NCBI GenBank assembly: GCA_017617125.1
Contig: JAFZWY010000009.1
Span: 62,001 to 126,000 of the forward strand
DNA length: 64,000 nt
Source: Bacteroidales bacterium
GTDB lineage: Bacteria; Bacteroidota; Bacteroidia; Bacteroidales; ML635J-15
Direction: 5' to 3'
Shown here: positions 31,906-59,372 of the stretch, in pieces
How positions within the stretch are numbered: the stretch's first letter is position 1
Layout of the letters: every line of letters begins with the position of its first letter
Made by a program: the position numbers and the translations under genes
The notes under the pieces: model-generated
Database searches by the model: none
What the model saw: only the letters and a program-made list of their open reading frames with translations
What the model was told of the DNA's origin: nothing

Positions 31906-32011
31906 CAATCTTTAGAAAATCGCAACATACTGATAATAAACAAACAACAAGAAACATAAAACTTTTTTCAAAAAAAATTAAAAAATCTATTGCAGAGTTC
32001 GAAAAAAGCAG

Positions 32012-32020
32012 TACTTTTGC
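32012..32020 (+). promoter_or_regulatory. Promoter of tRNA-Asp
   Basis: TACTTTTGC, with TTG 19 bp upstream at 31990-31992 fitting the Bacteroidota -33 element. The tRNA begins 25 bp downstream. Confidence 0.7.
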
Positions 32021-32045
32021 ATCGCTTTTCACGAAGCAATCAGCT

Positions 32046-32119
32046 GGTGTGGTAGTTCAGCTGGTTAGAATACCGGCCTGTCACGCCGGGGGTCGAGGGT
32101 TCGAGTCCCTTCCACACCG
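32046..32119 (+). tRNA. tRNA-Asp (GTC)
   Basis: 74 nt. Acceptor arms GGTGTGG/CCACACC with G73; D arm GTTC...GAAT; anticodon stem CCGGC/GCCGG with loop CTGTCAC, so anticodon GTC; T arm GAGGG-TTCGAGT-CCCTT. The 3' CCA is not encoded. Confidence 0.96.
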
Positions 32120-32123
32120 CAGA

Positions 32124-32152
32124 GAAGACAGATTAACAGTCTGTCTTTTTTG
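32124..32152 (+). terminator. Terminator of tRNA-Asp
   Basis: AAGACAGA and TCTGTCTT arms with a T-run, 5 bp after the tRNA. Confidence 0.85.
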
Positions 32153-32215
32153 TTTTTTATACCCCAACAAATAACATTCATTTCCTCAAATCAATCCGAA
32201 ATCGCAAATTAATTT

Positions 32216-32224
32216 TATCTTTGC
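32216..32224 (+). promoter_or_regulatory. -7 box of the elbB promoter
   Basis: TATCTTTGC, 21 bp before the elbB ATG. Confidence 0.6.
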
Positions 32225-32245
32225 AAAAAATTTATAACACACAAC

Positions 32246-32890
32246 ATGAAGAAAATTGCAGTAATACTTTCGGGTTGCGGAACACGCGACGGCAGTGAAA
32301 TACACGAGTCAACACTTTCGTTATTGGCTCTCGACATGAACGGATGCAAGTACCAGTGCTTTGCCCCCGACAGAAATCAGACCGAAACCGTAAACCACTT
32401 CACGCAAAAGCAGGAAAGCGAAAAAAGAAACATGCTTGCCGAAGCCGCTCGTATTGCACGTTGCGACATAAAGCCGCTTAACGCAATCAACGCTGCCGAC
32501 TACGATGCATTGTGGATTCCTGGCGGACTTGGCGCAGCCAAGAACCTCTGCTCCTATTTCTACGAAGGCGAAAACATGAAGGTCGATTCCGAAGTCGAGG
32601 CTGCAATCAAGGCTTTCAACAAGGCTGGTAAGCCAATTGTGGCGCTCTGCATTGCTCCTGTCATCGTCGCCAAGGTTCTTGGAGCCAACGTAACATCGGG
32701 TAAGGATGCCGGCACTGCCGCAAAAATCGAAGCCATGGGCGGAAAAAACACTGTCTGCAACTTCGACGAAATAGCCTACGATGCCGAAAAACGCGTAATT
32801 ACCGCTCCCTGCTATATGCTCGATGCATCAATCTCGCAGATTTGGCTGGGTATTAAGAAGGCTGCCGACAAGCTCGTTGAACTGATATAA
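32246..32890 (+). CDS. elbB: ElbB/GlxIII-like DJ-1/PfpI-family protein
   Basis: 214-aa protein closely following the E. coli ElbB pattern: KKIAVILSGCGTRDGSEIHESTLSLLAL, CFAPDRNQTETVNHFT, WIPGGLGAAKNL, ALCIAPVIVAKVLG and APCYMLDASISQIW. ElbB proteins belong to the DJ-1/PfpI class I glutamine-amidotransferase-like superfamily. They were first linked to isoprenoid synthesis and later to glyoxalase (methylglyoxal to lactate) activity; the physiological role is not settled. A MATE transporter gene starts 1 nt after its stop, so the two are one operon. Confidence 0.93.
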   Translation: MKKIAVILSGCGTRDGSEIHESTLSLLALDMNGCKYQCFAPDRNQTETVNHFTQKQESEKRNMLAEAARIARCDIKPLNAINAADYDALWIPGGLGAAKNLCSYFYEGENMKVDSEVEAAIKAFNKAGKPIVALCIAPVIVAKVLGANVTSGKDAGTAAKIEAMGGKNTVCNFDEIAYDAEKRVITAPCYMLDASISQIWLGIKKAADKLVELI

Positions 32891-32891
32891 G

Positions 32892-34193
32892 GTGAACAAG
32901 GAAATCCTAAGGCTTGCACTGCCAAACATAATTACCAACATCACCGTTCCTCTGCTCGGAATGGTCGATTTGGCTATTGTCGGCCATATCGGCAACGAGA
33001 CCTATATTGGTGCAATTGCCTTAGGCACAACTATCTTCAATCTGATATACTGGAATTTCGGTTTCCTGCGCATGGGCACCAGCGGACTTGCCGCGCAAGC
33101 CTATGGTGCAGGCGACAAAGAGGAAGCGATGCGCATACTTGTCCGCGGACTTACCATCGCCCTTTGCGCAGCCGCTCTCCTTATAGCCCTGCAATACCCT
33201 ATTGCATTGCTATCCGATGCCATATTGAACTGCAGCGACGAAACGCTAAACCTAACATTGTCGTATTTTTATGTGCGCATTTGGGCGGCACCAGCGACAC
33301 TAGGGCTATACGCCATAAAAGGCTGGTTCATAGGAATGCAGAATTCGAAAACACCTATGGTTGTTGCCATTGTGCTGAATATCGTCAACATTTTCGCCAG
33401 CCTTGCCTTTGTAATCTGGCTCAAGATGGACATAGTTGGTGTGGCTCTCGGAACGGTAATAGCGCAATACTCGGGACTGGCATTGTCCATAATCTTGTGG
33501 TTCAAGCACTACGGCAACATGCGTCACCTTATCGACATTCGCGGAAGCCTGCACAAAGCCGAGATGAAACGCTTTTTCAAGCTTAATCGCGACATCTTCC
33601 TGCGCACACTCTGCCTCTGTGCCGTATTCACCTTCATTCCTGCAATATCGGCCAGCATGGGCGACCTTATACTTGCCGCCAACACCCTGATAATGCAGCT
33701 GTTCACCTTGTTCTCGTACATTCTCGACGGTTTTGCCTACGCTGGCGAATCGCTTGTTGGCAAGTACATAGGTGCCAAGAATCGCGAATCGCTTATTAAG
33801 GCGATACGACATCTCGTTTATTGGGGATTGATTTTCACAGCATTATTCACGGTGATATACTTCTTCTGGAGCGAAAACATCTACTATATACTCACCAACG
33901 ACAGCAATGTTGTCGGCGAGGCCATGGGCTACAACCTTTGGACTATGCTGATACCGCTCTGCGGATTCGCCGCCTTCCTGTTCGACGGTATTTATATAGG
34001 TGCGACAGCTGCGAAGTCGATGCGCAACATAATGTTTATCGCCACTGCTGTTTTCTTCGTCGGATATTTCATATTGCAGCCAATACTCGGCAACGACGGA
34101 CTCTGGATAGCATTCCTGCTATTCCTGGTTTTCCGTGGAGGATTGATGTGGATAAGGTACAAGAAAAACGTGGTGGAATCAGTTGAGAGTTGA
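32892..34193 (+). CDS. MATE-family multidrug/cation antiporter
   Basis: 433 aa with about 12 hydrophobic helices. The N-terminal region LALPNIITNITVPLLGMVDLAIVGHIG and the matching second-half region SMGDLILAANTLIMQLFTLFSYILDGFAYAGESLVGKYIGAKN are hallmarks of the MATE fold (DinF-like branch). Start codon is GTG at 32892, one base after the elbB stop. The last codons and stop (GTTGAGAGTTGA) merge into the GTTGAAA repeat array that follows, so the C-terminus may be repeat-derived. Substrate unknown; drug or metabolite export by Na+/H+ antiport is the family role. Confidence 0.9.
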   Translation: MNKEILRLALPNIITNITVPLLGMVDLAIVGHIGNETYIGAIALGTTIFNLIYWNFGFLRMGTSGLAAQAYGAGDKEEAMRILVRGLTIALCAAALLIALQYPIALLSDAILNCSDETLNLTLSYFYVRIWAAPATLGLYAIKGWFIGMQNSKTPMVVAIVLNIVNIFASLAFVIWLKMDIVGVALGTVIAQYSGLALSIILWFKHYGNMRHLIDIRGSLHKAEMKRFFKLNRDIFLRTLCLCAVFTFIPAISASMGDLILAANTLIMQLFTLFSYILDGFAYAGESLVGKYIGAKNRESLIKAIRHLVYWGLIFTALFTVIYFFWSENIYYILTNDSNVVGEAMGYNLWTMLIPLCGFAAFLFDGIYIGATAAKSMRNIMFIATAVFFVGYFILQPILGNDGLWIAFLLFLVFRGGLMWIRYKKNVVESVES

Positions 34194-34335
34194 AAGTTGA
34201 AAGGCTGTAGAGTCGTTGCGAGCAACGGCCTCTACTATTCAAATCTTCAACCTTTAGCTCGACGCAGTCAAATCATCAAATTATCGAATCATCAAATCAT
34301 CAAATCTTCAAATATAAAATCGCAAATCATCCTTA
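34180..34335. repeat. Composite intergenic repeat, copy 3
   Basis: GTTGAAAG units from the end of the MATE gene, then an imperfect palindrome at 34206-34236 (TGTAGAGTCGTTGC...GCAACGGCCTCTACT). A CTTTAGCTCGACGCAGTCAA element follows, then ATCATCAAAT units up to the rhodanese promoter. Confidence 0.75.
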
Positions 34336-34342
34336 TATTTGC
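34334..34342 (+). promoter_or_regulatory. -7 box abutting the rhodanese start
   Basis: TATATTTGC ends 3 nt before the ATG at 34346, implying a leaderless transcript. Confidence 0.5.
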
Positions 34343-34345
34343 AAA

Positions 34346-34750
34346 ATGAAACGAATCATTATAATATTAATTGTCATTGCCGTAATTGCAGCGGGCGTGA
34401 CAGCCATAATTTATTTCAGCAATATGAACGACAAATTTACCACATTGAGTGCCAACGACTTTGAAAATGCCATCGCCGACGACCAGACCATAATCCTCGA
34501 TGTACGCACCGCCGACGAATATGCTGGCGGACACATTCCCAACGCCATAAATATCGACGTCAACCGCGCAGGCTTTCTCTACGAAGCCGACGAAAAGCTT
34601 CCCAAGGACAAGACCATTGCCGTATATTGCCATGGTGGTGTGCGCAGCCGCAAGGCCGCATCTCTCCTCTCCGACAACGGCTACACCATCCTAAACCTCG
34701 ACGGCGGCTTCAAGGAATGGCAGAGCGCAGGAAAAGAAACGGAGCAGTAG
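34346..34750 (+). CDS. Membrane-anchored rhodanese-like protein
   Basis: 134 aa. An N-terminal hydrophobic segment (KRIIIILIVIAVIAAGVTAII) forms a signal anchor. A single rhodanese domain follows: ILDVRTADEYAGGHIPNAINI, active-site loop YCHGGVRSRKAA with the catalytic Cys, and LDGGFKEW at the end. Family role is sulfane-sulfur transfer; the loop is of the single-domain GlpE/PspE-like type. Expected to face the periplasm. The promoter box is almost on top of the start codon. Confidence 0.9.
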   Translation: MKRIIIILIVIAVIAAGVTAIIYFSNMNDKFTTLSANDFENAIADDQTIILDVRTADEYAGGHIPNAINIDVNRAGFLYEADEKLPKDKTIAVYCHGGVRSRKAASLLSDNGYTILNLDGGFKEWQSAGKETEQ

Positions 34751-34807
34751 AAGGAAAACGACAACAGGAACAACATCAAACAACCATAAACTATTTCAAG
34801 CAACACA

Positions 34808-34915
34808 GACGCATGTTCTTGCGTCTCAACAATCTTAATTTATTACATTGCACAAAGTCCTGAAGGGACGACACAAAACAATCGGGAGTACAATCCAGGG
34901 ATTGCGCATGCCTGG
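34808..34915. repeat. String of small hairpins at the left edge of the AT-rich island
   Basis: Short inverted repeats in series: AGACGC...GCGTCT (about 34808-34828), AGTCCTGAAGGGAC (about 34856-34869), and CCAGGGATTGCGCATGCCTGG (about 34896-34916). The 34751-35132 gap holds these plus AT-rich DNA with a possible -7 box TAATTTTG near 35030. No gene seen. Confidence 0.5.
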
Positions 34916-35132
34916 GCGAAAGAAAGATATACGAGATTATAGGATCAAAGATTATAACAACTGATTCTCAGTTATTTGTAAATACATAAAATTATAATTA
35001 TAAATCTTGTTTCTACAAATTTAATTTAGTAATTTTGTACACGATATTTATGAGGTAATATCTATAACCATGCATGCAATAGCATTTTATTATCTCATTG
35101 AATTATTTTTATAACGAATAATTGTAATTGAC

Positions 35133-36170
35133 ATGAATAAAAATGAAGGAAATAAAGACAAAAAAAAGTTTAAAGAAAGATTCTATAATAAGTATAATTA
35201 CTATGAAAATTACAAAAAAGATGCTAAAATATTCTTTAAAAACCATAGCATAGAAAAATTTATATTAATCAGTTTAGTATTTCTTATTTTATATAATTGC
35301 GAAAATTTATTCACTAATTATATTTTCTACAATTATCCGAATTGGTTAGATAAGATATTTGATGTTTTTCATTTATCACCTTTTTTGAATTATACGACCT
35401 TTTTTATTGCAATACTCAGTTTCATCACAATATTATATAAAGCTATAAAACGCAAAAACATATCTCCTTTTTTATTCATTTTTTTGAGTTTTTTACTGTT
35501 TTCATATCATAGTAGTGAAAAATGGGAATATTTAAACCTACCTTTTTCTCAGAAATTAGATTATAGACATTTATTATGTTTATTTTTGGTTGTATTTTTA
35601 TCTATTGAATCACTAAAATTTATATACCCTATTATTATCCGTCCTATACGGATATTAATACACACATCAATAACATCACCATTATTAACGTTAATAAGAT
35701 ATTCAACAAAACTTCCATTAAGACATTTTTTAAAAAAAATTAAAGCTAAATTTATAAAACAAAGCAACAATGAGTCTAGTTATATAGGTTTTTTACAAAA
35801 TACAAAAAAAGAAGATTGTCGAAATGTTGGATGGGGAAATTATGCAAAATCTATTACTATTAAGATTAAGGAGATGTCCGAGAAAAAAATCGAAGAAAGT
35901 TTTGCTATCGGAATTTCTGGGCTTTGGGGATCTGGAAAAACAACATTTATGAATCATATAAAGAGTAATCTATCCTCTTATGAATTCATAAAAATATATG
36001 ATTTTAAACCATGGGCATGCTCAGACCCGAAACAGATATCAAAAGAATTTTTCAACTCTCTTATCCATAATATTAATCCTAATGATAATAATCTAGCAAA
36101 AAGATTATTAAAATATGCCGACATTATTGAAAATATAAACAAACTTTCCTGGATTGCAAAAATTGTATAA
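35133..36170 (+). CDS. N-terminal part of the KAP NTPase (up to the internal stop)
   Basis: 345 codons. A Lys/Asn-rich cytosolic start (1-40) is followed by about four hydrophobic segments, around residues 43-57, 84-103, 109-125 and 146-170. A basic linker precedes the NTPase core, where Walker A reads GLWGSGKTT (263-271). After it comes the KAP-typical IYDFKPWACSDPKQISKEFFNSL. The fragment ends before Walker B, so alone it could bind a nucleotide at best and would not hydrolyse it. ATG at 35133. Confidence 0.7.
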   Translation: MNKNEGNKDKKKFKERFYNKYNYYENYKKDAKIFFKNHSIEKFILISLVFLILYNCENLFTNYIFYNYPNWLDKIFDVFHLSPFLNYTTFFIAILSFITILYKAIKRKNISPFLFIFLSFLLFSYHSSEKWEYLNLPFSQKLDYRHLLCLFLVVFLSIESLKFIYPIIIRPIRILIHTSITSPLLTLIRYSTKLPLRHFLKKIKAKFIKQSNNESSYIGFLQNTKKEDCRNVGWGNYAKSITIKIKEMSEKKIEESFAIGISGLWGSGKTTFMNHIKSNLSSYEFIKIYDFKPWACSDPKQISKEFFNSLIHNINPNDNNLAKRLLKYADIIENINKLSWIAKIV

Positions 36171-36278
36171 ACACTAAAATACCCAAAGAAAAATTCTGTC
36201 TCAGAACTAAAAGACAAAGTTGAGGATAGAATAAAAGAGAGTAATACTATTGTTTTTTTTATAGACGATTTAGACAGA

Positions 36279-37943
36279 TTGGGCTCTGAAGAATTGTACG
36301 AAGTAATAAAACTCATTCGTATCACTGCAAATTTCAAAAACATTATATATATAGTTGCATATGATCCAGTATATATAGATAAATTACTAGAAGAAAAAGG
36401 GATAAAAGAAGGTTCTGCATTTATGAAAAAAATTATAAATGTGGAAATATCTCTTCCAGCCTATGAAAAACTTCACATTCCAGAATTATTGTATGATGAA
36501 ATATCTAGATTGTTTAAAAAGCCCAGCCAAACACTTAAAGATTTAATACACGAGGCGATTTTTTATACAGACGATAATTCATATGTATCATCTTTGCATT
36601 TATCAGGATTCCGAGATGTAAAAAGATTTGCAAACATTTTTGCTTTGAATTTTTCATATATCTATATAAACAAGAACTTAAATAATATAAATATAAGAGA
36701 TTTCTATTTGATAGAGTTACTACATTACACATATCCAAGAACACACAATGCTTTAATTGTAAATTCTGATGCATTCTTTAAACAAAGAATTGATAATCGT
36801 ACATATGAGTTAGTAGATGATTTGTATAATGACGAGAAAAATGAAGATACCATAAAAATGATAAAATCAATAGCAAATGACTTCTCTAAAAATACATTAT
36901 TATTATTACGTTTGCTATTCCCTAAAAAAATAAAACAAGAAAACAGCATTCAATACAAGGATAATTTCTTAGAGTATTTTTGCTATAGAAACCTTGATGA
37001 CATATTAAGTCTTGATGAATTCGACAAAGTATTATTTGCCAAATCAGATAATGAAATAGAAAAAACTATTAAAAATTGGCATGAACAAAAGAGAGGATAT
37101 TGGTTTGACGAATCTATTAGCAATAGGTTCAAAACATATAATACAGATTCATTTTCAGAACAAAAAGCAAAGAATTATTTGTCAACCATAATTAAACTTA
37201 CAAGATATATTCGTTCAGAAAAAATTATTAAAGAACTTATGTCTTTTTGTATTGATAAAAGGAAATACAATAAAACTATCTCTTCAACAATTCTTTCAAT
37301 TTATATAAAAGATGAAATAGAAAAAGAAGTCACAAAAAATGATAATCCAATGATATGGAATATGATTTTTAATACTATTTATACAGCACAACCAGAACCT
37401 GATTTTGAGAATTGGGAAAATCATTCATTGTTATCAAACAAAGACATCGAAGAATTAAAAAAACTTTTTTTTGATTTTTTGATTAAAAATGATTATTTCA
37501 AATCATCTTTCAATTTTAATAATATACTAAATGAGAATAGTTATGCATACCAATATTTAAAATTTTCAGTAGTCTTAGATTGGTTTGATCCTCTTGTTGA
37601 CGAGAGGATGGGTTATGTATTATTAGGTAAAGAATACATATTTAATCATTTGGAATGTTTAAATATAACAGATTTCGAATCTTATGACAATCAAATTACA
37701 GAATATACAAAAGACATGCCTAATGATAGATTTAATGATATTGATGAATTTGGTGAATACAATTGTGAACACATCATTAGTGAACTATTTGCTAACAAAG
37801 AAACATATATTGAATTTATTATAAAATGCGTCAAATGTTTAGATGAAAATAGAATAAAAGACCACTTAAGGCGTGTTGGAATAAGCAAAAACGAATATGA
37901 AACATATATAAACACAGAAAATAGATATCCTATTATTACATAG
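36279..37943 (+). CDS. C-terminal part of the KAP NTPase (after the internal stop)
   Basis: 554 codons in the same frame as the upstream fragment. Its earliest start after the stop is the TTG at 36279; the first ATG is at 36423. Either start would leave out the Walker B aspartates encoded at 36264-36269, so independent translation would not give an active NTPase. The start region (LYEVIKLIRITANFKNIIYIVAYD) is the conserved strand-helix after Walker B in KAP proteins. The rest is a long helical region without a recognised domain, rich in Asn, Lys, Tyr and Phe. Confidence 0.65.
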   Translation: MGSEELYEVIKLIRITANFKNIIYIVAYDPVYIDKLLEEKGIKEGSAFMKKIINVEISLPAYEKLHIPELLYDEISRLFKKPSQTLKDLIHEAIFYTDDNSYVSSLHLSGFRDVKRFANIFALNFSYIYINKNLNNINIRDFYLIELLHYTYPRTHNALIVNSDAFFKQRIDNRTYELVDDLYNDEKNEDTIKMIKSIANDFSKNTLLLLRLLFPKKIKQENSIQYKDNFLEYFCYRNLDDILSLDEFDKVLFAKSDNEIEKTIKNWHEQKRGYWFDESISNRFKTYNTDSFSEQKAKNYLSTIIKLTRYIRSEKIIKELMSFCIDKRKYNKTISSTILSIYIKDEIEKEVTKNDNPMIWNMIFNTIYTAQPEPDFENWENHSLLSNKDIEELKKLFFDFLIKNDYFKSSFNFNNILNENSYAYQYLKFSVVLDWFDPLVDERMGYVLLGKEYIFNHLECLNITDFESYDNQITEYTKDMPNDRFNDIDEFGEYNCEHIISELFANKETYIEFIIKCVKCLDENRIKDHLRRVGISKNEYETYINTENRYPIIT

Positions 37944-37984
37944 ACGATATGCCACCAAACCTATTCTCTCTGAACATAGAATCT

Positions 37985-38085
37985 TTAGTCAACTTCACTC
38001 AAACATCACGACTAAATTTTCAAATCTTTGAATCATCAACCTTTAGCTCAACGAAGTTAAATTTTCAATTTTTTGAATCTTTCCT
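37985..38085. repeat. AT-rich TTTTCAAATC array with a CTTTAGCTCAACGAAGTTAA element
   Basis: Marks the right edge of the AT-rich island. The element is an imperfect palindrome also found at 34245, 59325-59360 and, inverted, near 56722. It ends at the rmuC promoter. No gene. Confidence 0.6.
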
Positions 38086-38086
38086 T

Positions 38087-38094
38087 ATCTTTGT
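38087..38094 (+). promoter_or_regulatory. -7 box of the rmuC promoter
   Basis: TATCTTTG, 17 bp before the rmuC ATG. Confidence 0.55.
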
Positions 38095-38111
38095 AGCAAA
38101 TTCGTGCGTAT

Positions 38112-39521
38112 ATGTTAATAGGTATTTTAATCGGAATAGTGATTGCTGGAATAGCTGCAGCAATAATAATAGTAGTGTTGAAAAACAATGCAAAAAAGGA
38201 TCTCGAGCAAACCAAGGAAATTATGTCGGCAAACGCCGCAGCCGAACACTCGCGACTCGAGACCGAACTCAACAATACCAACCGCAGAATAGGCGAACTC
38301 ACAGATGAAAACAATAGTCTGAAAAACGAAAAAAAATCGTTACAAACAGAAAACACCAATCTACAAGTGAGCCTGCAAGAAGCCAACACACGTCTTGTAG
38401 AACAAAACAATAAAAACGAACAGCTGAAAGCCGAACGCGAAGAACAACAGAAACAGCAGATGGAACTTCTGCGCCAGCAGTTCGAAAATACATCGCAGAC
38501 ATTGCTCAAGCAACGCCAGGAGGAATTTGCAAAGACAAACACCGAAAACATGGGCAATATAGTAGCCCCGTTACGCGACGAACTCGAAAATATGCGCAAG
38601 CAGCTTTCGGAAGCAAAGTCATCGAACGAAAAGAACATATCGTCGCTCGAAGGCGCACTCAAGAACATGATTGAACAGTCGCAGGCCATAGGCCGAAACG
38701 CCGACAATCTAGCCGACGCACTCAAGAACCGCGGTAAAGTACATGGAGACTGGGGCGAACAGGTGCTTGCCAACATCCTTTCGGAAAGCGGACTGCGCGA
38801 AGGTACCGAATTCTCGTGCCAGGAAAGCTTCAAGGGCGAGAAAGGCAACGAACTGCGTCCCGACGTTGTGGTAAACTGCGCCGATGGTAGCCGCATAATC
38901 ATCGACTCGAAGGTTTCGCTTACCGCATATTCGGAATACAACGGAGCCGAAAACGAGGAACAGCGCAAAGCCGCTATCAAGGCAAACTACGAATCGGTAA
39001 TCAACCACGTGAAGGAGCTCGCAAACAAGGAATATCCAAAATACGTCGAGAATTCGATAAAATACGTGATGATGTTCATTCCCAACGAAGGCTCGTACAT
39101 TCTGGCTACAAACTACAAGTCGGAACTTTCGATGGAAGCCTTCCGCATGGGCGTCATAATATTGAACCCCACAAACCTGATGCTGGCCCTGCACCTTGTA
39201 CTGCAGACATGGCACAACAGCCGTCAGGAAGACAACTGCAAGAACATCATCAATGCCGCCAACAGCATGTACGACAAGTTCGTATCGTTTGCCGACAGCT
39301 ACAATACCCTTGGCAATCAGCTCGAAACAGCACGCCGAACCTACGACAAGGCCATGGGACAGCTGCAGACTGGAAACGCAAACCTGCTAAAGCAGATGGA
39401 CTCGCTGCGGAATCTTGGCGTAAACACAACAAAACGTATCAAGTCGCGCGAACCAAAATCGCTGACACAGAACATCGAAAGCATCGAGACGGCAGAAACA
39501 CAAGCCGACGACGAAGCATAA
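38112..39521 (+). CDS. rmuC: DNA recombination protein RmuC
   Basis: Named from E. coli, where loss raises inversion between short inverted repeats; predicted nuclease. N-terminal transmembrane anchor (residues 2-23), long coiled coil (about 27-165) and an RmuC core. The core has GDWGEQVLANILSESGL and a PD-(D/E)xK-like active site: RPDVVVNCADG followed by RIIIDSKVSL. The conserved block KYVMMFIPNEGSYILA and the C-terminal helical region are present. Length 469 aa is typical. The genome is rich in short inverted repeats, the proposed substrate type, but a link is speculation. Confidence 0.94.
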   Translation: MLIGILIGIVIAGIAAAIIIVVLKNNAKKDLEQTKEIMSANAAAEHSRLETELNNTNRRIGELTDENNSLKNEKKSLQTENTNLQVSLQEANTRLVEQNNKNEQLKAEREEQQKQQMELLRQQFENTSQTLLKQRQEEFAKTNTENMGNIVAPLRDELENMRKQLSEAKSSNEKNISSLEGALKNMIEQSQAIGRNADNLADALKNRGKVHGDWGEQVLANILSESGLREGTEFSCQESFKGEKGNELRPDVVVNCADGSRIIIDSKVSLTAYSEYNGAENEEQRKAAIKANYESVINHVKELANKEYPKYVENSIKYVMMFIPNEGSYILATNYKSELSMEAFRMGVIILNPTNLMLALHLVLQTWHNSRQEDNCKNIINAANSMYDKFVSFADSYNTLGNQLETARRTYDKAMGQLQTGNANLLKQMDSLRNLGVNTTKRIKSREPKSLTQNIESIETAETQADDEA

Positions 39522-39545
39522 ACTTGCGATTTTTCCAAAATAACA

Positions 39546-39554
39546 TATCTTTGC
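39546..39554 (+). promoter_or_regulatory. -7 box of the thioesterase operon
   Basis: TATCTTTGC, 25 bp before the ATG at 39580. Confidence 0.6.
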
Positions 39555-39579
39555 GCGCGAATAATAAAGACACACAACT

Positions 39580-39990
39580 ATGCACACTTACAAGCACGAA
39601 GTAAAATACCACGAATGCGACAGGATGGGTATCACCCACCATTCGAACTATGTGCGCTTCATGGAGGAGGCCCGCGTTGACTGGCTCGACCAGATAGGTT
39701 ACGGATTCGAAAAGGTTGAGGCCGATGGAGTTTTCTCGCCAGTACTGGCAATTGCATGCAACTACAAGAACCCGTCAACATTCAAAGACGTAATCGAAAT
39801 AGAAGTGTCGGTTAGCAAAATGAGCGAGATAAAATTCGAATTTGCCTACACAATGCGCGTAGGCGAAAAAATTGTATGCACCGCGCAAAGTACACACTGC
39901 TTCATCGAAAACAACCGTCCTGTAGCTCTCTCGAAAAGGCTGCCCGAACTCTATAAGGCCATACAGGAAGCATACGAAGCAAATCAATAA
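39580..39990 (+). CDS. YbgC-like acyl-CoA thioesterase (hot-dog fold)
   Basis: 136 aa, single 4HBT hot-dog domain. The active-site block HECDRMGITHHSNYVRFMEEARVDWL aligns with the family YxTDxxGxxHHxxYxxxxExAR, with the catalytic Asp kept. Hydrolyses acyl-CoA or acyl-ACP thioesters, in E. coli linked to phospholipid metabolism. First gene of a small cluster: the DUF2752 gene starts 9 bp downstream. No tol-pal genes are adjacent. Confidence 0.9.
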   Translation: MHTYKHEVKYHECDRMGITHHSNYVRFMEEARVDWLDQIGYGFEKVEADGVFSPVLAIACNYKNPSTFKDVIEIEVSVSKMSEIKFEFAYTMRVGEKIVCTAQSTHCFIENNRPVALSKRLPELYKAIQEAYEANQ

Positions 39991-39999
39991 AGCGACACT

Positions 40000-40287
40000 A
40001 TGTTTCTCGACTGGCTCGAACATCACCTTCTGCCCTGCCCGACAAAATTCTTTTTCGGCGTGGAATGTCCCGGTTGCGGAATGCAAAGGGCGATTATAGA
40101 ATTGTTGAGAGGCAACCTTGTCGAGAGCATAAAGCTTTACCCGCCACTGATTCCAATGCTGCTAATGCTGGTGGTTTTAGTAATAAACCTTAAAGTCAAT
40201 TCGGCAGTATGGCAAAAAGTGCTGAAATACTTTTTCATAGCCAACGTGGCAATAATATTGATAAACTACATATTTAAATTCATATAA
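40000..40287 (+). CDS. DUF2752 small membrane protein
   Basis: 95 aa with the DUF2752 signature CPTKFFFGVECPGCGMQRAIIELLRGN near the N-terminus and two hydrophobic helices (about 48-62 and 75-94). The CPGCG motif suggests metal or redox chemistry, but no function is known. The downstream CCC-motif membrane gene starts 1 nt after its stop. A paralogue is at 44780, again next to CCC-motif genes. Confidence 0.85.
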   Translation: MFLDWLEHHLLPCPTKFFFGVECPGCGMQRAIIELLRGNLVESIKLYPPLIPMLLMLVVLVINLKVNSAVWQKVLKYFFIANVAIILINYIFKFI

Positions 40288-40288
40288 C

Positions 40289-40702
40289 ATGGAAACGACC
40301 TACGAGAATAACAACAATTTCAATGTCAACGAAAACCCGGAAAACGAAGTAAAGCAAACTCCGAAAAGCAACGGCATGAAAATGAATGTCCCCAACGCAA
40401 ATCTAGTCCTGACATTCGGCATTATATCTATTGTCACATTCTGCTGCTGCAGCGGAATCGTGGGAATAATATTCGCAATAGTAGCGCTGATTCTGTCAAT
40501 CAAAAGCAAGAGAGAATTCAGAGCCAACAGCGACCTATACGACGAAGCATCGTACAGCAAGGTATCTGCAGGAAAAACCTGCGCAATTATCGGTCTTGTA
40601 CTTGGACTTATAATGCTGATAATCGCTATTGTAGCCGTGAATTTATTAAGTACCGACGAACTCATGCACATTGATGGAGGCTGGAACCAGATGGGATACT
40701 AG
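40289..40702 (+). CDS. CCC-motif (DUF4190-like) membrane protein
   Basis: 137 aa: an Asn/Glu-rich N-terminal tail (1-35) and two transmembrane hairpins. The first is VLTFGIISIVTFCCCSGIVGIIFAIVALILS with the CCC motif; the second is SAGKTCAIIGLVLGLIMLIIAIVAV. The intervening loop DLYDEASYSKVSAGK matches the loop of the two smaller paralogues at 43968 and 44365. Function unknown. The stop is followed directly by composite repeat copy 4. Confidence 0.8.
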   Translation: METTYENNNNFNVNENPENEVKQTPKSNGMKMNVPNANLVLTFGIISIVTFCCCSGIVGIIFAIVALILSIKSKREFRANSDLYDEASYSKVSAGKTCAIIGLVLGLIMLIIAIVAVNLLSTDELMHIDGGWNQMGY

Positions 40703-40858
40703 ATGAAAGTTAAAAGTTGAAAGTTAAGAGTTAAAAGTTGAGAGTTGAAAGGCTGTAGAGCCGTTGCGAGCAACGACATCTAGTATTTGAATCCTTGAAT
40801 CTTTGAATCTTTGAATTTTTAAATCTTCAAATCTTCGAATTATCTAATTATCAAAACA
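40703..40858. repeat. Composite intergenic repeat, copy 4
   Basis: GTTGAAAG/GTTAAAAG units from 40705, an imperfect palindrome at 40754-40784 (TGTAGAGCCGTTGC...GCAACGACATCTAGTA), then TTGAATC units up to the LuxC-like gene's ATG. Confidence 0.75.
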
Positions 40859-40859
40859 A

Positions 40860-41894
40860 ATGACACTAAACGACAGAATAGAAATTCTCACATCTTTCGG
40901 CAACGACCTTGCTGCTATTTGCAACGGAACCGAAATAGATGGATTCCCTGGATTTGAAAAGATAAAGGTCTACAATCCGTGGTTTACCGAGGAAAATGTG
41001 AGATTTTGCCTACAAAACTGGCATTCGCAGCTCGACAGGAAATCATTGTCCGACTTTTGCTCACACTACCCTATCGTCGACAAGCCGTCGGATTTCCGCG
41101 TGGCAATAGTGATGGCCGGCAACATCCCGATGGTCGGCTTCCACGACTTCGCCTGCGCATTCTTGTGCGGAGTGAAGATTGTCGCCAAGCTGTCGAGCAA
41201 GGACAACGTGCTGATGAAATGGGCAATAGACAGGATTGTAGCCAAGTCACCCGAACTAGTCGACCGCATAACATATACCGAGGAAAGACTTCCCGACTTC
41301 GACGCTGTAATCGCAACAGGTAGCAACAACACCAACCGCTATTTCGAATACTATTTCGGCAAGTACGACAAGATTCTGCGCCACAACCGCAACTCTGTGG
41401 CGATTCTCACTGGTAACGAAACCGACAAGGAACTTGAAGGTCTCGCCGACGATGTTTTTATGTATTTCGGTCTTGGTTGCCGCAGCGTATCAAAATTCTA
41501 CCTCCCAGAAGGTTACGACTTCAACAAAATGGGTGAAGCCTTCCAGAAATACGCCGACATAATAAACCACAACAAGTACAACAACAACTACAGTTACCAA
41601 TATGCCGTAATGGGAATGAACAAGATAGAGCACGTCAATTTCGGACACCTGCTGCTCACCGAGAAGAAAGACCTCAACTCTCCTATCGGCGTAGTACATT
41701 TCGAATACTACAACGACATAAACAAACTGGCGACCGAACTTGCACAACAGAGCGACAATATCCAATGCATAGTATCGAAAAACAAGATTTTTGAAAATTG
41801 CATAAACTTTGGTGAAACACAAATGCCAAATATTTATAACTTTGCAGATAATATTGACACAATTAAATTCATTACAGGACTATGCAGAAAATAA
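40860..41894 (+). CDS. LuxC-like acyl-CoA reductase
   Basis: 344 aa of the LuxC/acyl-CoA reductase family, which reduces activated fatty acyl groups to aldehydes with NADPH. Family blocks: VAIVMAGNIPMVGFHDFACAFLCG, IVAKLSSKD, VIATGSNNTNRYFEYYFGK and the catalytic-Cys region MYFGLGCRSVSKFYLPEGYD. Shorter than LuxC of luminous bacteria (about 480 aa), as in other Bacteroidota. No luxD/luxE or luciferase genes, so bioluminescence is not implied. Overlaps the next gene by 13 bp. Confidence 0.87.
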   Translation: MTLNDRIEILTSFGNDLAAICNGTEIDGFPGFEKIKVYNPWFTEENVRFCLQNWHSQLDRKSLSDFCSHYPIVDKPSDFRVAIVMAGNIPMVGFHDFACAFLCGVKIVAKLSSKDNVLMKWAIDRIVAKSPELVDRITYTEERLPDFDAVIATGSNNTNRYFEYYFGKYDKILRHNRNSVAILTGNETDKELEGLADDVFMYFGLGCRSVSKFYLPEGYDFNKMGEAFQKYADIINHNKYNNNYSYQYAVMGMNKIEHVNFGHLLLTEKKDLNSPIGVVHFEYYNDINKLATELAQQSDNIQCIVSKNKIFENCINFGETQMPNIYNFADNIDTIKFITGLCRK

Positions 41895-42463
41895 TAAAAT
41901 ACAAAATCTCAGACGATCTCGAATTCGTAAGGGAAATAGAAATGAAGGATGACTCTACTTTCAAGGACCTTCACACAGCAATACAAAAAGCTTGTAAATA
42001 CGACCCTACACTCATAACAATGTTCTACATTGCCGACGAGAACTGGGAAGTGGACGATGAGCCCGAGAACGAAATCCTACTCGAACGCATGGACGAGAAG
42101 ACACAGCAGGACTGCCGTCTGATGGAAGACACTCCGCTGAATTTCGTCAAACCCGAAAAAGGACAGAAATACCTGTACCTGTACGACCTGCTTGGCGAAA
42201 ACAGTTTCTTCGTAGAGGTTGTCGATGTGCGCAACTTCACCAAGAAGGACGAGAAGACGAAATTCCCCAAATGCACCCTGGCCGAAGGACTTCCACCGAA
42301 GCAGCTGGAACTCGACGACTTAGGCGAAGAATTCAACGAAAACGAACCTCTCGAAGACTTCGACGATTTTGACGAAGAAGAGGAAAATCCGTACTACGAC
42401 AATGAATTCGAAGACGGATACGATGAATTCGGTGGCGGCTACAACGACGACTACAACTACTAA
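41882..42463 (+). CDS. Plasmid pRiA4b ORF-3-like protein with acidic tail
   Basis: 193 aa. The N-terminal 140 residues follow the pRiA4b ORF-3/IS1096 TnpR-like fold (YKISDDLEFVREIEMKDDSTFKDLHTAIQKACKYD, MFYIADENWEV..., YLYLYDLLGENSFFVEV). This is now a common stand-alone chromosomal protein, with no transposase alongside. The last 50 residues are Asp/Glu/Tyr/Gly-rich (DFDDFDEEEENPYYDNEF). Function unknown. ATG overlaps the end of the LuxC-like gene; miaA starts 12 bp downstream. Confidence 0.83.
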   Translation: MQKIIKYKISDDLEFVREIEMKDDSTFKDLHTAIQKACKYDPTLITMFYIADENWEVDDEPENEILLERMDEKTQQDCRLMEDTPLNFVKPEKGQKYLYLYDLLGENSFFVEVVDVRNFTKKDEKTKFPKCTLAEGLPPKQLELDDLGEEFNENEPLEDFDDFDEEEENPYYDNEFEDGYDEFGGGYNDDYNY

Positions 42464-42475
42464 AACCGTCTGCTC

Positions 42476-43375
42476 TTGGCTAAATACCTTATAATAATAG
42501 CAGGTCCTACCGGAGTTGGAAAAACCGACCTTAGCATAGGTATTGCCAAGCATTTCAATTCCGAAATATTGTCGTGCGACTCACGACAGTTCTACCGCGA
42601 GCTGGGTATCGGTGTTGCCAAGCCCACAACCGAGCAGATGAAGGAAGTAAAGCATCACTTTGTCGACAATGTTTCGGTAACCGAACGCTATAGCATCTGG
42701 CAGTACGAAGACGATGCCATAAAACTGCTCGACGATTATTACAAAACACACGATTATGCCGTAATGTGCGGAGGTTCTGGACTTTACATAGACGCCGTAT
42801 GCAACGGAATCGACCTTATGCCCGACCCCGACCCAGTAATCAGGCAGGAAGTCATCGATATGTACAACGAAAAGGGAATCGAAGCCCTGCGTTTCGAACT
42901 GCAGCGCATCGACCCCGAATATTATGCACAAGTCGACCTCAAAAATCCGCAGCGCATAATGCGAGGTATCGAAATGACCAGGCAGACAGGCAAGCCTTTT
43001 TCGCAGTTCAGGACTAGCACCCGACGCAAGCGCGACTTCGAAACCATAAAGATACTTGTCAACACCGACCGTAAAGTCCTGTACGACAGAATAAACCGCC
43101 GTGTAGACATAATGCTCGAACGCGGACTAGTTGACGAAGCTCGCTCGCTGATGCAGTATCGCGACATGATTGCGCTCAAGACTATCGGCTACACCGAACT
43201 GTTCGACCATTTCGACGGAAACACCAGCCTCGACGAAGCTATAGAACTCATCAAGCGTAATTCGCGCCGCTATGCACGCCGGCAGATAACGTGGTTTCAC
43301 CGAAACAACGAATACGTCGAATGCGAACCCGATGCCGAAACCATTTTAACTGAAATATCAGAGAGAATTAAATAA
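42476..43375 (+). CDS. miaA: tRNA dimethylallyltransferase MiaA, TTG start
   Basis: Adds the dimethylallyl group to A37 of UNN-decoding tRNAs. P-loop GPTGVGKTDLS (about 9-19), the DSRQFYRELGIGVAKPT block, GGSGLYIDAVCNGID and the C-terminal YARRQITWFHR are all present. 299 aa. The start must be TTG at 42476: the previous gene's stop codon lies in the same frame 12 nt upstream, there is no ATG between, and the next in-frame ATG would delete the P-loop. Confidence 0.95.
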   Translation: MAKYLIIIAGPTGVGKTDLSIGIAKHFNSEILSCDSRQFYRELGIGVAKPTTEQMKEVKHHFVDNVSVTERYSIWQYEDDAIKLLDDYYKTHDYAVMCGGSGLYIDAVCNGIDLMPDPDPVIRQEVIDMYNEKGIEALRFELQRIDPEYYAQVDLKNPQRIMRGIEMTRQTGKPFSQFRTSTRRKRDFETIKILVNTDRKVLYDRINRRVDIMLERGLVDEARSLMQYRDMIALKTIGYTELFDHFDGNTSLDEAIELIKRNSRRYARRQITWFHRNNEYVECEPDAETILTEISERIK

Positions 43376-43399
43376 GGTACTAACGAAAATTATACGAGT

Positions 43400-43918
43400 A
43401 TGAAAAAGAACATTCTTTTAGCAATCAGTTTTGCACTAGGTCTGACAGCCATGGTATCGTGCAACCAGACTCAGGCAAACAACGAAACAGAAACAAACAA
43501 CAAAGAGACTGTCGCACAGACCGAGGCTCCCAAGGAAATAGAGAAACTTGCCAACGACTTGATGTCGGACCAGACTAGCACTGAAGCCGAGAAAGAAAAA
43601 GGAGAAGTCGTTACCCTCGACGAAAAGAATTTCAGCAAAGCCATTGCTAAAGGCCTGGTACTTGTCGACTTTTATGCGACCTGGTGCGGTCCATGCAAGA
43701 TGCAGAAGCCAGTTCTTGCCGAAGTTGCCAAGGATAACGCCGACAATCTTACAGTCGGCACAGTCGACACCGACAAATGTCAAAACCTGTCGAGCAGATA
43801 CAACATTCGCTCAATTCCATGCATGATACTTTTCGAAAACGGCAAAGAAGTTAAGCGCATAATCGGCTATCACGACAAGCAGGAACTTATGAAAGAACTT
43901 ATCGGATATATAGAATAA
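43400..43918 (+). CDS. Thioredoxin-fold lipoprotein
   Basis: 172 aa: lipoprotein signal ending TAMVSC, a Thr/Glu/Asn-rich linker (about 22-75), then a complete thioredoxin domain with active site WCGPC and the cis-Pro segment RSIPCMILF. The extra Cys next to the cis-Pro is not standard. Expected at the periplasmic membrane face as a thiol-disulfide reductase or oxidase. Follows miaA by 24 bp; ends at a strong terminator. Confidence 0.9.
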   Translation: MKKNILLAISFALGLTAMVSCNQTQANNETETNNKETVAQTEAPKEIEKLANDLMSDQTSTEAEKEKGEVVTLDEKNFSKAIAKGLVLVDFYATWCGPCKMQKPVLAEVAKDNADNLTVGTVDTDKCQNLSSRYNIRSIPCMILFENGKEVKRIIGYHDKQELMKELIGYIE

Positions 43919-43919
43919 C

Positions 43920-43951
43920 AAAAAAGCCCAGAAAATTCTGGGCTTTTTTGT
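43920..43951. terminator. Bidirectional terminator after the thioredoxin lipoprotein
   Basis: AAAAGCCCAG and CTGGGCTTTT arms around AAAATT-type loop, with A- and T-runs; converging gene at 43968. Confidence 0.85.
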
Positions 43952-43967
43952 TTGTTAAATGTAGCTT

Positions 43968-44276
43968 TTACATCAGTGATGACCAGAGGCTTGCGTAAGC
44001 TGTTCCAAGTATTGCTACCCAGATAATCCAGTATACAATATACAAAGCGCTGAGGATAATACCAATAATAGATGTAATCTTACCAGCCTTCAACATACCT
44101 TCGCCAGTGTACTGGTCTGGAGCTTCATTGTATGCTTCAGTACCCTTCTTTGCAAGTACAAGACCAATAATACCGCAAATTAAACCTACGAACATGCATC
44201 CAAATACGATGGAGCAAATACCCAATACCATTGCAGCTACTGCATATGGTGCATTCTGTTTTACTTGATCAGTCAT
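43968..44276 (-). CDS. CCC-motif/DUF4190-like membrane protein, paralogue
   Basis: 102 aa with two transmembrane hairpins: YAVAAMVLGICSIVFGCMFVGLICGIIGLVLAKKG and AGKITSIIGIILSALYIVYWIIWVAIL. A short loop NEAPDQYTGEGMLKAGK connects them. Very similar to the 44365 product; likely a recent tandem duplication. Own -7 box (TAATTTTG on the minus strand at 44304-44311). Function unknown. Confidence 0.8.
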   Translation of the reverse strand: MTDQVKQNAPYAVAAMVLGICSIVFGCMFVGLICGIIGLVLAKKGTEAYNEAPDQYTGEGMLKAGKITSIIGIILSALYIVYWIIWVAILGTAYASLWSSLM

Positions 44277-44364
44277 ATTATTAAATGTTTAAAATATTTG
44301 TTACAAAATTATGCATTTTGCAATATACAGCAAAATGTTTTTTATAAATTTAATACGATAAAAC

Positions 44365-44694
44365 TTATTGAATAGAAATATTTCCTATTGCAGAACCACA
44401 CATTCCTGCACATAAGGCGCCTAATATTATTACCCAAACAATCCAGTATACTATATGTATAGCACTGAAGACTATGCCTATAATAGACGTTACCCTACCT
44501 GCTGACAACATTCCTTTGCCTGTGTACCTGTCAGGATCTGCATTATATGCATCAAAACCTTTTCTGGCAAGCACAAGACCAATTATACCACATACCAAAC
44601 CGATAAAAAGGCAGCCGAAAACGATGGAACATATTCCCAAAACCATTGCAGCTACTGCATACGGAGCATTCTGTCTTAGAAATTGATCTGTCAT
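44365..44694 (-). CDS. CCC-motif/DUF4190-like membrane protein, paralogue
   Basis: 109 aa, same architecture as 43968 (YAVAAMVLGICSIVFGCLFIGLVCGIIGLVLARKG ... AGRVTSIIGIVFSAIHIVYWIVW). Both genes share the leader TTTAATAATATG, and this one has a minus-strand -7 box TATATTTG at 44720-44727. Separate promoters imply independent control after duplication. Confidence 0.8.
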   Translation of the reverse strand: MTDQFLRQNAPYAVAAMVLGICSIVFGCLFIGLVCGIIGLVLARKGFDAYNADPDRYTGKGMLSAGRVTSIIGIVFSAIHIVYWIVWVIILGALCAGMCGSAIGNISIQ

Positions 44695-44779
44695 ATTATT
44701 AAACGTTTAATTATCGTCACAAATATATGTATTTGGAACTAACTGGCAATAAGTTTTTTCGCTACCAAACTAATCGATC

Positions 44780-45077: not shown

Positions 45078-46142
45078 TTATTTCTTTTTATTCTTGGTAT
45101 TCTTCCTTACGCCGATATCCTTGCGGGCCCTCTCAACGGTCTCGCTGGTGCGCAGGCGCGTCGCATTGCTTACCCCGCCAGCCTCTTCATCCTCAAATTC
45201 GGCTTCGCCCTTCTTGCGCTTTGCCACGCTTGGGTCCGAAATCGGCTTGCCACCATACAATACATTGTCGACGTTGAACTTACAGTCGGTGAATGCCTCT
45301 TCGTGAAACAAGACATCCTTAACATTGCCTATGCGGCTGGTGTTGCAAGCAACAGTCGTCAGCGATCGGCACTCGGCAAACGCATTCCGCGAAACTATAG
45401 TCTTCACATACGATTCCTGCACTTTTGTAAAAATAACGGTAGTAAGGCTACGGCACGACATAAAAGCACCTTCCTCAACCCTACGCACGTTGTCGTAAAG
45501 CGACACCGTCTTCAGTGCCCAGCAATTCGAAAATGCCTCCTTTCCTATAATGCGCAAAGATTTCGGAAAACGCACAGCTGCAAGAGCCTTGCACCCCTCG
45601 AAGGCATACGAACAAATCTCCTGCAAGCCCTCGGGCAAAACAATCTCCATAAGTCCGCTAGCCCTGAATGCACCTGGGCTAATTACTGTAAGACCGCTAG
45701 GAAAATGGAAACTCCTAAGGTTGGTACAATTTCGGAAACAATCGGGACCTATACGTTTCACATTGCTCGAAATACCTAAATTAGAAAGATTTACGCACCA
45801 GCGGAAAGCACTGCTATCGATAATCTCCACGTTATCGGGAATAGTGACGCAGGTAATGTTTCGACAGCCGTAAAACGCCTTAGCTCCTATCCTCTTTACG
45901 GGATAGAACTTGCCGTTAATCTTTATCTGACGCATTATGTTTACCTGTGTCGGCGTTTCCTCGTTGTAGTTGATGTCGACATACAATGACCTTTTGTTCT
46001 CCTCGAATGCATATCTTATTCCACAATACTTGAAATGCATCGAATCGACCACTTCAGCCTCCTGGGATTCAGTATCCTGGGCATAAGTGCCGGCGCCGAA
46101 AACGAGCAGCATTAATATCGACAACAGAAAGAAGCGTTTCAT
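45078..46142 (-). CDS. Secreted BspA-like leucine-rich repeat protein
   Basis: 354 aa: signal peptide MKRFFLLSILMLLVFGAGTYAQ, then an array of LRR_5 (BspA-type) repeats of about 23 residues. These carry the pattern xIxxxAFxxCxxLxxVxIPxxV, for example VKRIGAKAFYGCRNITCVTIPDNV and LQEICSYAFEGCKALAAVRFPKSL (about 85-270). The C-terminal 60 residues are charged and Lys-rich with no sorting domain, so attachment or secretion route is unclear. Such repeats mediate adhesion in some Bacteroidota. Coupled to the DUF2752 gene downstream. Confidence 0.88.
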   Translation of the reverse strand: MKRFFLLSILMLLVFGAGTYAQDTESQEAEVVDSMHFKYCGIRYAFEENKRSLYVDINYNEETPTQVNIMRQIKINGKFYPVKRIGAKAFYGCRNITCVTIPDNVEIIDSSAFRWCVNLSNLGISSNVKRIGPDCFRNCTNLRSFHFPSGLTVISPGAFRASGLMEIVLPEGLQEICSYAFEGCKALAAVRFPKSLRIIGKEAFSNCWALKTVSLYDNVRRVEEGAFMSCRSLTTVIFTKVQESYVKTIVSRNAFAECRSLTTVACNTSRIGNVKDVLFHEEAFTDCKFNVDNVLYGGKPISDPSVAKRKKGEAEFEDEEAGGVSNATRLRTSETVERARKDIGVRKNTKNKKK

Positions 46143-46160
46143 ACGACAAACATTTAGGGT

Positions 46161-46169
46161 GCAAAGTTA
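46161..46169 (-). promoter_or_regulatory. -7 box of the LRR-DUF2752 operon
   Basis: Minus-strand TAACTTTGC, 18 bp before the ATG at 46142. Confidence 0.55.
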
Positions 46170-46201
46170 AGAATTGTTTTCAAAATTAATGCCAAGCCGA
46201 T

Positions 46202-47104
46202 TCAACTTCGTGGATGATGCATGAGAACCTCCTCGAGCAAGGTCTGCTTGTTGATGTGAGTATAGATTTCGGTCGTGGTAATAGACTCGTGGCCAAGCAT
46301 TTCCTGCACGACCCTAAGGTCGGCGCCTCGTTCAATAAGATGTGTTGCAAACGAATGGCGGAAAGTATGCGGAGAAACGGTCTTCTCTATTCCTGCAGCC
46401 TTACACGTCTGCTTGATTATGGTGAAAATCATCGCACGCGTCAGCTTTTTGCCGTTGCGGTTAAGAAAGAGAATGTCGCCACTGCCCTTCTGCGGCACAA
46501 TATGGTTGCGGAACGACTTCATATAGTTGTCAATTTCCTGCATGGCCTTGTGACCTATCGGCACAAGCCTCTGCTTGTCGCCCTTGCCTACAACACGGAT
46601 AAATTCCTCGCCAAAAAACAAGTCCGACAGCCGCAAGCCCACAAGTTCCGACACCCGCAGGCCGCAACCGTATAGCACCTCGATTATCGCCCTGTTGCGA
46701 TGTCCTAGTTCTGTGCTTACATCAATGGCGCGGATTATAGACTCTATTTCCTCGACTGTAAGCACTGTCGGCAAATGACGGGCAAGCTTTGGCGTCTCAA
46801 TAAGTTCGGTCGGGTCATCATCTATCTGGTCATCTACAAGCAGGAACTTGTACAGCGACTTTATTGCCGAAATGGCGTGTGACTGCGAAGTTGCGGCTAT
46901 ATCCTGCGATGCAATATGGCGTATGTATTCGCGAAGCATATCGGTATCGACCTCGGCGAAATTGCCAGAGAATCCGATTTTGTCAAGATACAGGTCGAAT
47001 TTTTGTAATTCCTGCATGTACGACACTCGCGTATTCTCAGAAAGAGAGCGCTCAAGCACTATGTACGATTCGTATTCCTTGAGTGTATTTTTGCGCGAGT
47101 CCAT
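46202..47104 (-). CDS. xerD: Tyrosine recombinase XerD/XerC type
   Basis: 300 aa. The N-terminal SAM-like core-binding domain is at about 5-90 and the catalytic domain at about 110-300. Catalytic residues are visible: Arg in YGCGLRVSELVGL, Lys in VVGKGDKQRLVP, HTFRHSFATHL (H-x-x-R), LGHESITTTEIY (His and nucleophile Tyr). Resolves chromosome dimers at dif. Full length, stand-alone and divergent from aroQ, with no phage genes nearby, so the housekeeping Xer recombinase is likelier than an integrase. No dif-like site was identified. Confidence 0.93.
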   Translation of the reverse strand: MDSRKNTLKEYESYIVLERSLSENTRVSYMQELQKFDLYLDKIGFSGNFAEVDTDMLREYIRHIASQDIAATSQSHAISAIKSLYKFLLVDDQIDDDPTELIETPKLARHLPTVLTVEEIESIIRAIDVSTELGHRNRAIIEVLYGCGLRVSELVGLRLSDLFFGEEFIRVVGKGDKQRLVPIGHKAMQEIDNYMKSFRNHIVPQKGSGDILFLNRNGKKLTRAMIFTIIKQTCKAAGIEKTVSPHTFRHSFATHLIERGADLRVVQEMLGHESITTTEIYTHINKQTLLEEVLMHHPRS

Positions 47105-47132
47105 TTTTATTCCCTGTTTCGCAAATAAGTTT

Positions 47133-59282: not shown

Positions 59283-59372
59283 GCTACAAATCTTTGAATA
59301 ATTAAATTTTTAAATCAGCATAGCTAACCTTCAGCTCGACGCAGTCAACCTTTAGCTCAGCGAAGCTATATC
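59283..59372. repeat. AT-rich array with two CTTTAGCTCRRCGNAG elements
   Basis: Two tandem imperfect palindromes (CTTCAGCTCGACGCAGTCAA and CTTTAGCTCAGCGAAGCTA) of the family also seen at 34245 and 38040, overlapping the 3' end of the cupin gene. Confidence 0.55.

What the first reader, a model, noticed from the sequence alone, without database searches (positions are those of the whole stretch)
35133..37943. AT-rich KAP NTPase gene split by a single in-frame TAA between Walker A and Walker B
Seen: one long frame of 936 codons with one stop (36168-36170). Walker A (GLWGSGKTT) lies upstream and FFIDDLDRL downstream, in the same frame. No ATG allows the second part to be made with Walker B. The island is sharply more AT-rich than rmuC and the rhodanese gene on each side. 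Known: KAP NTPases are patchily distributed, and F-plasmid PifA (anti-T7) belongs to them. Inference: a transferred, possibly defence-related gene that is decaying, phase-varying or read through.
Basis: partly seen in the sequence, partly recalled or inferred. Interest (0 to 1): 0.62.

Follow-up and report, generated by a model that had tools for sequence, protein, structure and literature searches.

The report
Transferred KAP NTPase gene, freshly broken
A Bacteroidales genome carries one foreign, AT-rich gene for a membrane-bound ATPase of a family linked to virus defence; a single stop codon cuts it in two, which looks like an ordinary recent loss of function (or an assembly base error), not a new mechanism.

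Summary
One 936-codon frame (35133-37943, +) holds one in-frame TAA (36168-36170) between an intact Walker A and an intact Walker B, and both halves match Pfam KAP_NTPase contiguously. Two sister species have rhodanese directly next to rmuC, so about 3.3 kb (roughly 34773-38056) holding only this gene is an insertion. No close homologue was found in the 25 other genomes held for the genus. Distant relatives (about 20-36% identity) occur in about 5% of sampled Bacteroidales. They are continuous single-chain proteins with similar Walker A to Walker B spacing, so the gene is not naturally split. Of 62 KAP matches in 393 Bacteroidales genomes, two carry an in-frame stop. All 14 residues invariant in 22 membrane-type homologues are kept, with no frameshift or second stop. 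The stop is therefore young (about 1-3% neutral divergence at most) or a consensus error in a draft assembly. Read-through and phase variation have no support: neighbouring genes end in TAA, no repeat lies at the site, and no homologue shares the stop. A defence role is plausible (some homologues sit near Qat, Hachiman, IetS and DpdF-like genes) but untested, and this copy stands alone. Ordinary; low interest.

The parts
34773..38056 (.). Inserted AT-rich island holding only the KAP gene (borders approximate, within repetitive intergenic DNA)
   Evidence: L051 (UBA1184) and L052 (RUG14538) have rhodanese followed directly by rmuC; L051 aligns to window 31919-34772 and then 38057-44356 with about 45 bp between; no copy of the island body in 25 other genomes of the genus.
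35007..35037 (+). Possible Bacteroidota-type promoter (TTG-N20-TAnnTTTG)
   Evidence: only match in the window, but 1.4 are expected by chance, so suggestive only.
35133..37943 (+). KAP NTPase reading frame, 936 codons with one internal stop
35133..36170 (+). First half (345 aa): hydrophobic N-terminal region and Walker A; would end before Walker B
   Evidence: PF07693 positions 3-106; hydrophobic segments at residues 43-61, 84-102, 147-165.
35919..35945 (+). Walker A GLWGSGKTT
   Evidence: G266, G268 and K269 are invariant in homologues.
36168..36170 (+). In-frame TAA
   Evidence: It lies in the poorly conserved linker between Walker A and Walker B.
36171..37943 (+). Second half (590 codons): Walker B and C-terminal region, with no usable start before Walker B
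   Evidence: PF07693 positions 131-287.
36255..36281 (+). Walker B FFIDDLDRL
   Evidence: D378, D379, D381, R382 and L383 are invariant in homologues.

Best explanation
A single-gene island carrying a membrane-anchored KAP P-loop NTPase was acquired between the rhodanese gene and rmuC in this lineage. Intact relatives are one polypeptide: N-terminal membrane helices, then the KAP ATPase domain, then a long C-terminal region. They most likely act as an ATP-driven sensor or effector against phages or other mobile DNA. Here one recent nonsense substitution cuts the frame between Walker A and Walker B, so the product is a 345-residue membrane stub without Walker B, and the second half has no start that includes Walker B. 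The gene is therefore most likely a fresh pseudogene, as expected when a transferred and costly accessory gene is no longer kept. Shown: the frame and stop, the insertion, continuity and spacing against homologues, retention of invariant residues. Inferred: that the loss is real rather than an assembly error, and that the ancestral role was defence.
For: (single stop, both halves KAP, no start before Walker B, neighbours also end in TAA). (empty site in two sister species). (no close relative in the genus). (homologues continuous across the site; Walker A to Walker B 105-119 aa in most, 109 here). (14 of 14 invariant residues kept). (2 of 62 KAP matches with an in-frame stop: an uncommon, scattered event). 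(about 5% of random substitutions here make a stop; one stop implies about 0.7% neutral divergence, at most about 3.4%). (homologue in G130 beside HamA/HamB and near QatC/QatD; G612 beside IetS; G702 near a DpdF-like helicase).
Against: No reads or second strain were available, so a consensus error in this draft assembly cannot be excluded. Preservation of every invariant residue fits a functional gene equally well. Most homologue loci examined (7 of 10) had no clear defence gene beside the KAP gene, and this copy has none.
Confidence: 0.65

Rival explanations
1. The TAA is a consensus or polymorphism error in a draft, probably metagenome-assembled genome, and the gene is intact in the organism or in most of its cells.
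For: Draft of 57 contigs, 91% complete, and both named sister genomes are MAGs. A single isolated substitution-type change with every invariant residue intact and no other lesion.
Against: An error landing exactly on a stop is a priori uncommon; about 5% of random substitutions in this gene do so. No other clear split of this kind was identified in the window, though two of the same-frame pairs stayed unresolved.
Confidence: 0.27
2. The stop is functional: UAA is read through or recoded to give a small amount of full-length KAP NTPase.
For: The frame continues for 590 open codons with conserved residues kept.
Against: No homologue has the stop. Of seven neighbouring genes checked, five end in TAA, one in TGA and one in TAG. 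No recoding element was recognised by eye, and a young pseudogene looks the same.
Confidence: 0.03
3. Phase-variable ON/OFF allele of a costly defence gene.
For: Only the general expectation that costly defence genes may be switched.
Against: The lesion is an in-frame stop, not a length change in a repeat. Repeats across the gene are short chance-level pairs. No second KAP copy in this genome could recombine with it.
Confidence: 0.03
4. The two halves are naturally separate subunits that rejoin into an ATPase.
For: Two consecutive frames, each carrying half of the domain.
Against: Homologues are one chain with similar spacing. No start codon in the second half would include Walker B, so the second subunit would lack it.
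Confidence: 0.02

Closest known systems
KAP family P-loop NTPases (Pfam PF07693)
   Same: Both halves match the profile contiguously; Walker A, Walker B (FFIDDLDRL) and all residues invariant in 22 relatives are present.
   Different: Interrupted by a stop. Hydrophobic segments lie before the P-loop; from general knowledge, many KAP proteins carry them inserted inside the domain.
PifA of the F plasmid (PADLOC PDLC02361)
   Same: Best PADLOC match of both halves (E 3e-13 and 5e-27), over the ATPase domain.
   Different: Walker A of the PADLOC PifA profile is near the N terminus (window residue 231 aligns to profile position 18), whereas here about 230 residues with hydrophobic segments precede it. 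Only the ATPase part matches, so it is not shown to be an orthologue.
QatA, the ATPase of the Qat anti-phage system
   Same: Weak KAP-domain match.
   Different: Far below the NCBIfam cut-off (23.5 against 600 bits). No QatB, C or D is beside it.
Unnamed membrane-type KAP NTPases of Bacteroidota (e.g. L003, L009, L010, L011)
   Same: Same layout: about 3-5 predicted N-terminal hydrophobic segments, KAP domain, long C-terminal region.
   Different: Intact frames; only about 25-36% identical to this one.

Membership tests
KAP NTPase family (PF07693) | Profile match over the P-loop domain above the curated cut-off | tested here: met
   140 bits over positions 3-287 against a cut-off of 20; for each half.
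KAP NTPase family (PF07693) | Walker A and Walker B motifs with conserved residues | tested here: met
KAP NTPase family (PF07693) | Single uninterrupted polypeptide | tested here: not met
   TAA at 36168. Descent from the family is clear, but a working member is not shown.
PifA anti-T7 exclusion protein | Full-length match to PifA, including the region outside the ATPase domain | tested here: not met
   only profile positions 18-107 and 162-344 of 720 match.
QatABCD system | QatB, QatC and QatD genes adjacent | tested here: not met
   neighbours are rhodanese-like and RmuC genes; QatA score far below cut-off.
Horizontally acquired island | Empty site in close relatives | tested here: met
   (L051, L052).
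Horizontally acquired island | Own integrase or clear target-site duplication | tested here: not met
   one gene only; no clean flanking duplication found.
Anti-phage defence gene | Protects against phage | not testable with these tools
   Needs an infection assay with an intact homologue.

The most novel reading that the evidence does not exclude
The stop-bearing allele segregates with intact alleles in the same species, so that a costly membrane KAP defence ATPase is repeatedly switched off by nonsense mutation when phage pressure falls.
Probability: 0.06. Interest if true: 0.4.

Novelty: new member of a known kind. Interest (0 to 1): 0.15.

Why it matters
It documents one more patchily distributed, single-gene acquisition of a membrane KAP NTPase in Bacteroidales, with the empty site in sister species, and shows the copy to be disrupted. 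The membrane-type KAP subfamily, some members of which sit near Qat, Hachiman, IetS and DpdF-like genes, may deserve a phage assay; the stop itself carries no new biology unless reads show otherwise.

Tried and rejected
Close relatives in named genome contigs and viral contigs: none. Phage records: none. Plasmids: only distant KAP-domain hits under 35% identity. Solved structures by sequence: none. Extra Pfam domain in the C-terminal region of this or 22 related proteins: nothing convincing. Duplicated DNA or an inverted repeat that could switch the stop: only short, chance-like pairs. A second copy of the island's left flank in the genome: none. Whether other same-frame pairs of long open stretches in the window (stops at 12726, 21627, 25325, 32888) are broken genes: 12726 separates two different proteins (PdxA and malic enzyme), 32888 ends one gene (32246-32890) in front of another, and the other two were not resolved.

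Full report
Observation. The frame 35133-37943 on the + strand encodes 936 residues with one stop, TAA at 36168-36170. Pfam KAP_NTPase matches the first half at profile positions 3-106 and the second at 131-287; scored together in the source genome the match is 140 bits against a cut-off of 20, with '1 TAA' inside. With about 25% GC, 936 random codons would hold about 87 stops, and the other five frames hold 16-80 per half, so the long frame is real coding sequence. No ATG, GTG or TTG lies in frame between the stop and Walker B; the first is TTG 36279, at the end of the motif.

Surroundings. GC falls to 0.21-0.28 inside and is 0.44-0.52 in the flanking genes; third-position GC is 0.20 against 0.56-0.62. 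In two sister species with 93-94% identical RmuC (L051, UBA1184; L052, RUG14538) the rhodanese gene is followed directly by rmuC, while genes on both sides stay collinear. In L051 only about 45 bp lie between the two aligned blocks. The window therefore has an insertion of about 3.3 kb carrying one gene. No integrase or clean target duplication was found; both borders lie in variable, repetitive intergenic DNA. No close homologue is in the other 25 genomes held for the genus; the best congeneric hits have E of 8e-6 or worse and are other KAP proteins. Whether sisters lost it or this lineage gained it is not strictly decided by the empty site, but composition and absence from the genus favour gain (inference).

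Homologues. In 393 Bacteroidales genomes, 20 (including this one) have a match at E 1e-10 or better, and a phylum-wide sample gives a similar share. All except this one are listed with no internal stop. In my alignment the Walker A to Walker B distance is 109 residues here and 105-119 in most relatives, and the stop falls in a poorly conserved linker that homologues cross without a break. The natural-split explanation is thus contradicted. Using the Pfam model, 62 KAP matches in 393 Bacteroidales genomes include two with an in-frame stop, this one (TAA) and one in G092 (TAG), so interruption is uncommon and scattered.

State of the gene. All 14 residues invariant among 22 membrane-type homologues (apart from the initial Met) are present, on both sides of the stop. 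About 5% of random substitutions in this sequence make a stop, so one stop corresponds to about 20 neutral substitutions (0.7%), with a rough 95% upper bound of 3.4% (a simple model). The lesion is young or is not real. The assembly is a 57-contig draft at 91% completeness; that it is metagenome-derived is an inference from this and from its sister genomes, which are MAGs. Without reads, error and mutation cannot be separated, so I put about 27% on error.

Function. The predicted layout is hydrophobic N-terminal segments, KAP ATPase, then a long C-terminal region without a known domain. PADLOC's best model is PifA, only over the ATPase part. Among ten homologue neighbourhoods fetched, three have defence genes beside or very near the KAP gene: G130 with HamA/HamB adjacent and QatC/QatD a few kb away, G612 with IetS, and G702 with a DpdF-like helicase. 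Other neighbours were housekeeping or unknown; no control set was run, so this is an indication only. [quoted passage not shown] That PifA excludes phage T7 is from general knowledge.

Alternatives to decay. Read-through: neighbouring genes use TAA as a normal stop, no homologue shares the stop, and no recoding element was seen. Phase variation: no repeat tract, no useful repeats and no second copy. Both remain possible only in the weak sense that they were not tested experimentally.

Verdict. Observation confirmed; the interpretation as a transferred, possibly defence-related and decaying gene is partly supported; the more exotic fates are not. Ordinary finding, interest 0.15.

Noticed in passing
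window 34254-34270, 38043-38059, 59331-59368 (and genus-wide): A short dispersed repeat, CCTTTAGCTCNNCGNAG followed by a partly palindromic YTAA, occurs 18 times in this genome and in 19 of 26 genomes of the genus, while the reversed control pattern occurs 0 times. One copy lies at the right border of the island. It looks like a REP-type element.
   Followed up: partly
window 34268-34313, 38020-38079, 40795-40841: AT-rich intergenic octamer-like repeats (TCAAATCATCAAATC...) recur between genes here and in sister species, and blur the island borders.
   Followed up: no
L072 (G130:C16:27001-47000): A compact defence island: QatC and QatD, a second KAP gene of QatA size (46086-47123 of the contig), a membrane-type KAP NTPase, HamA and HamB.
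   Followed up: partly
G092:C64:40438-41283: Another Bacteroidales KAP match with one in-frame TAG; not examined further.
   Followed up: no
window 44017-44759: Stretches cross-match each other's positions in sister locus L052, suggesting a local duplicated gene pair.
   Followed up: no
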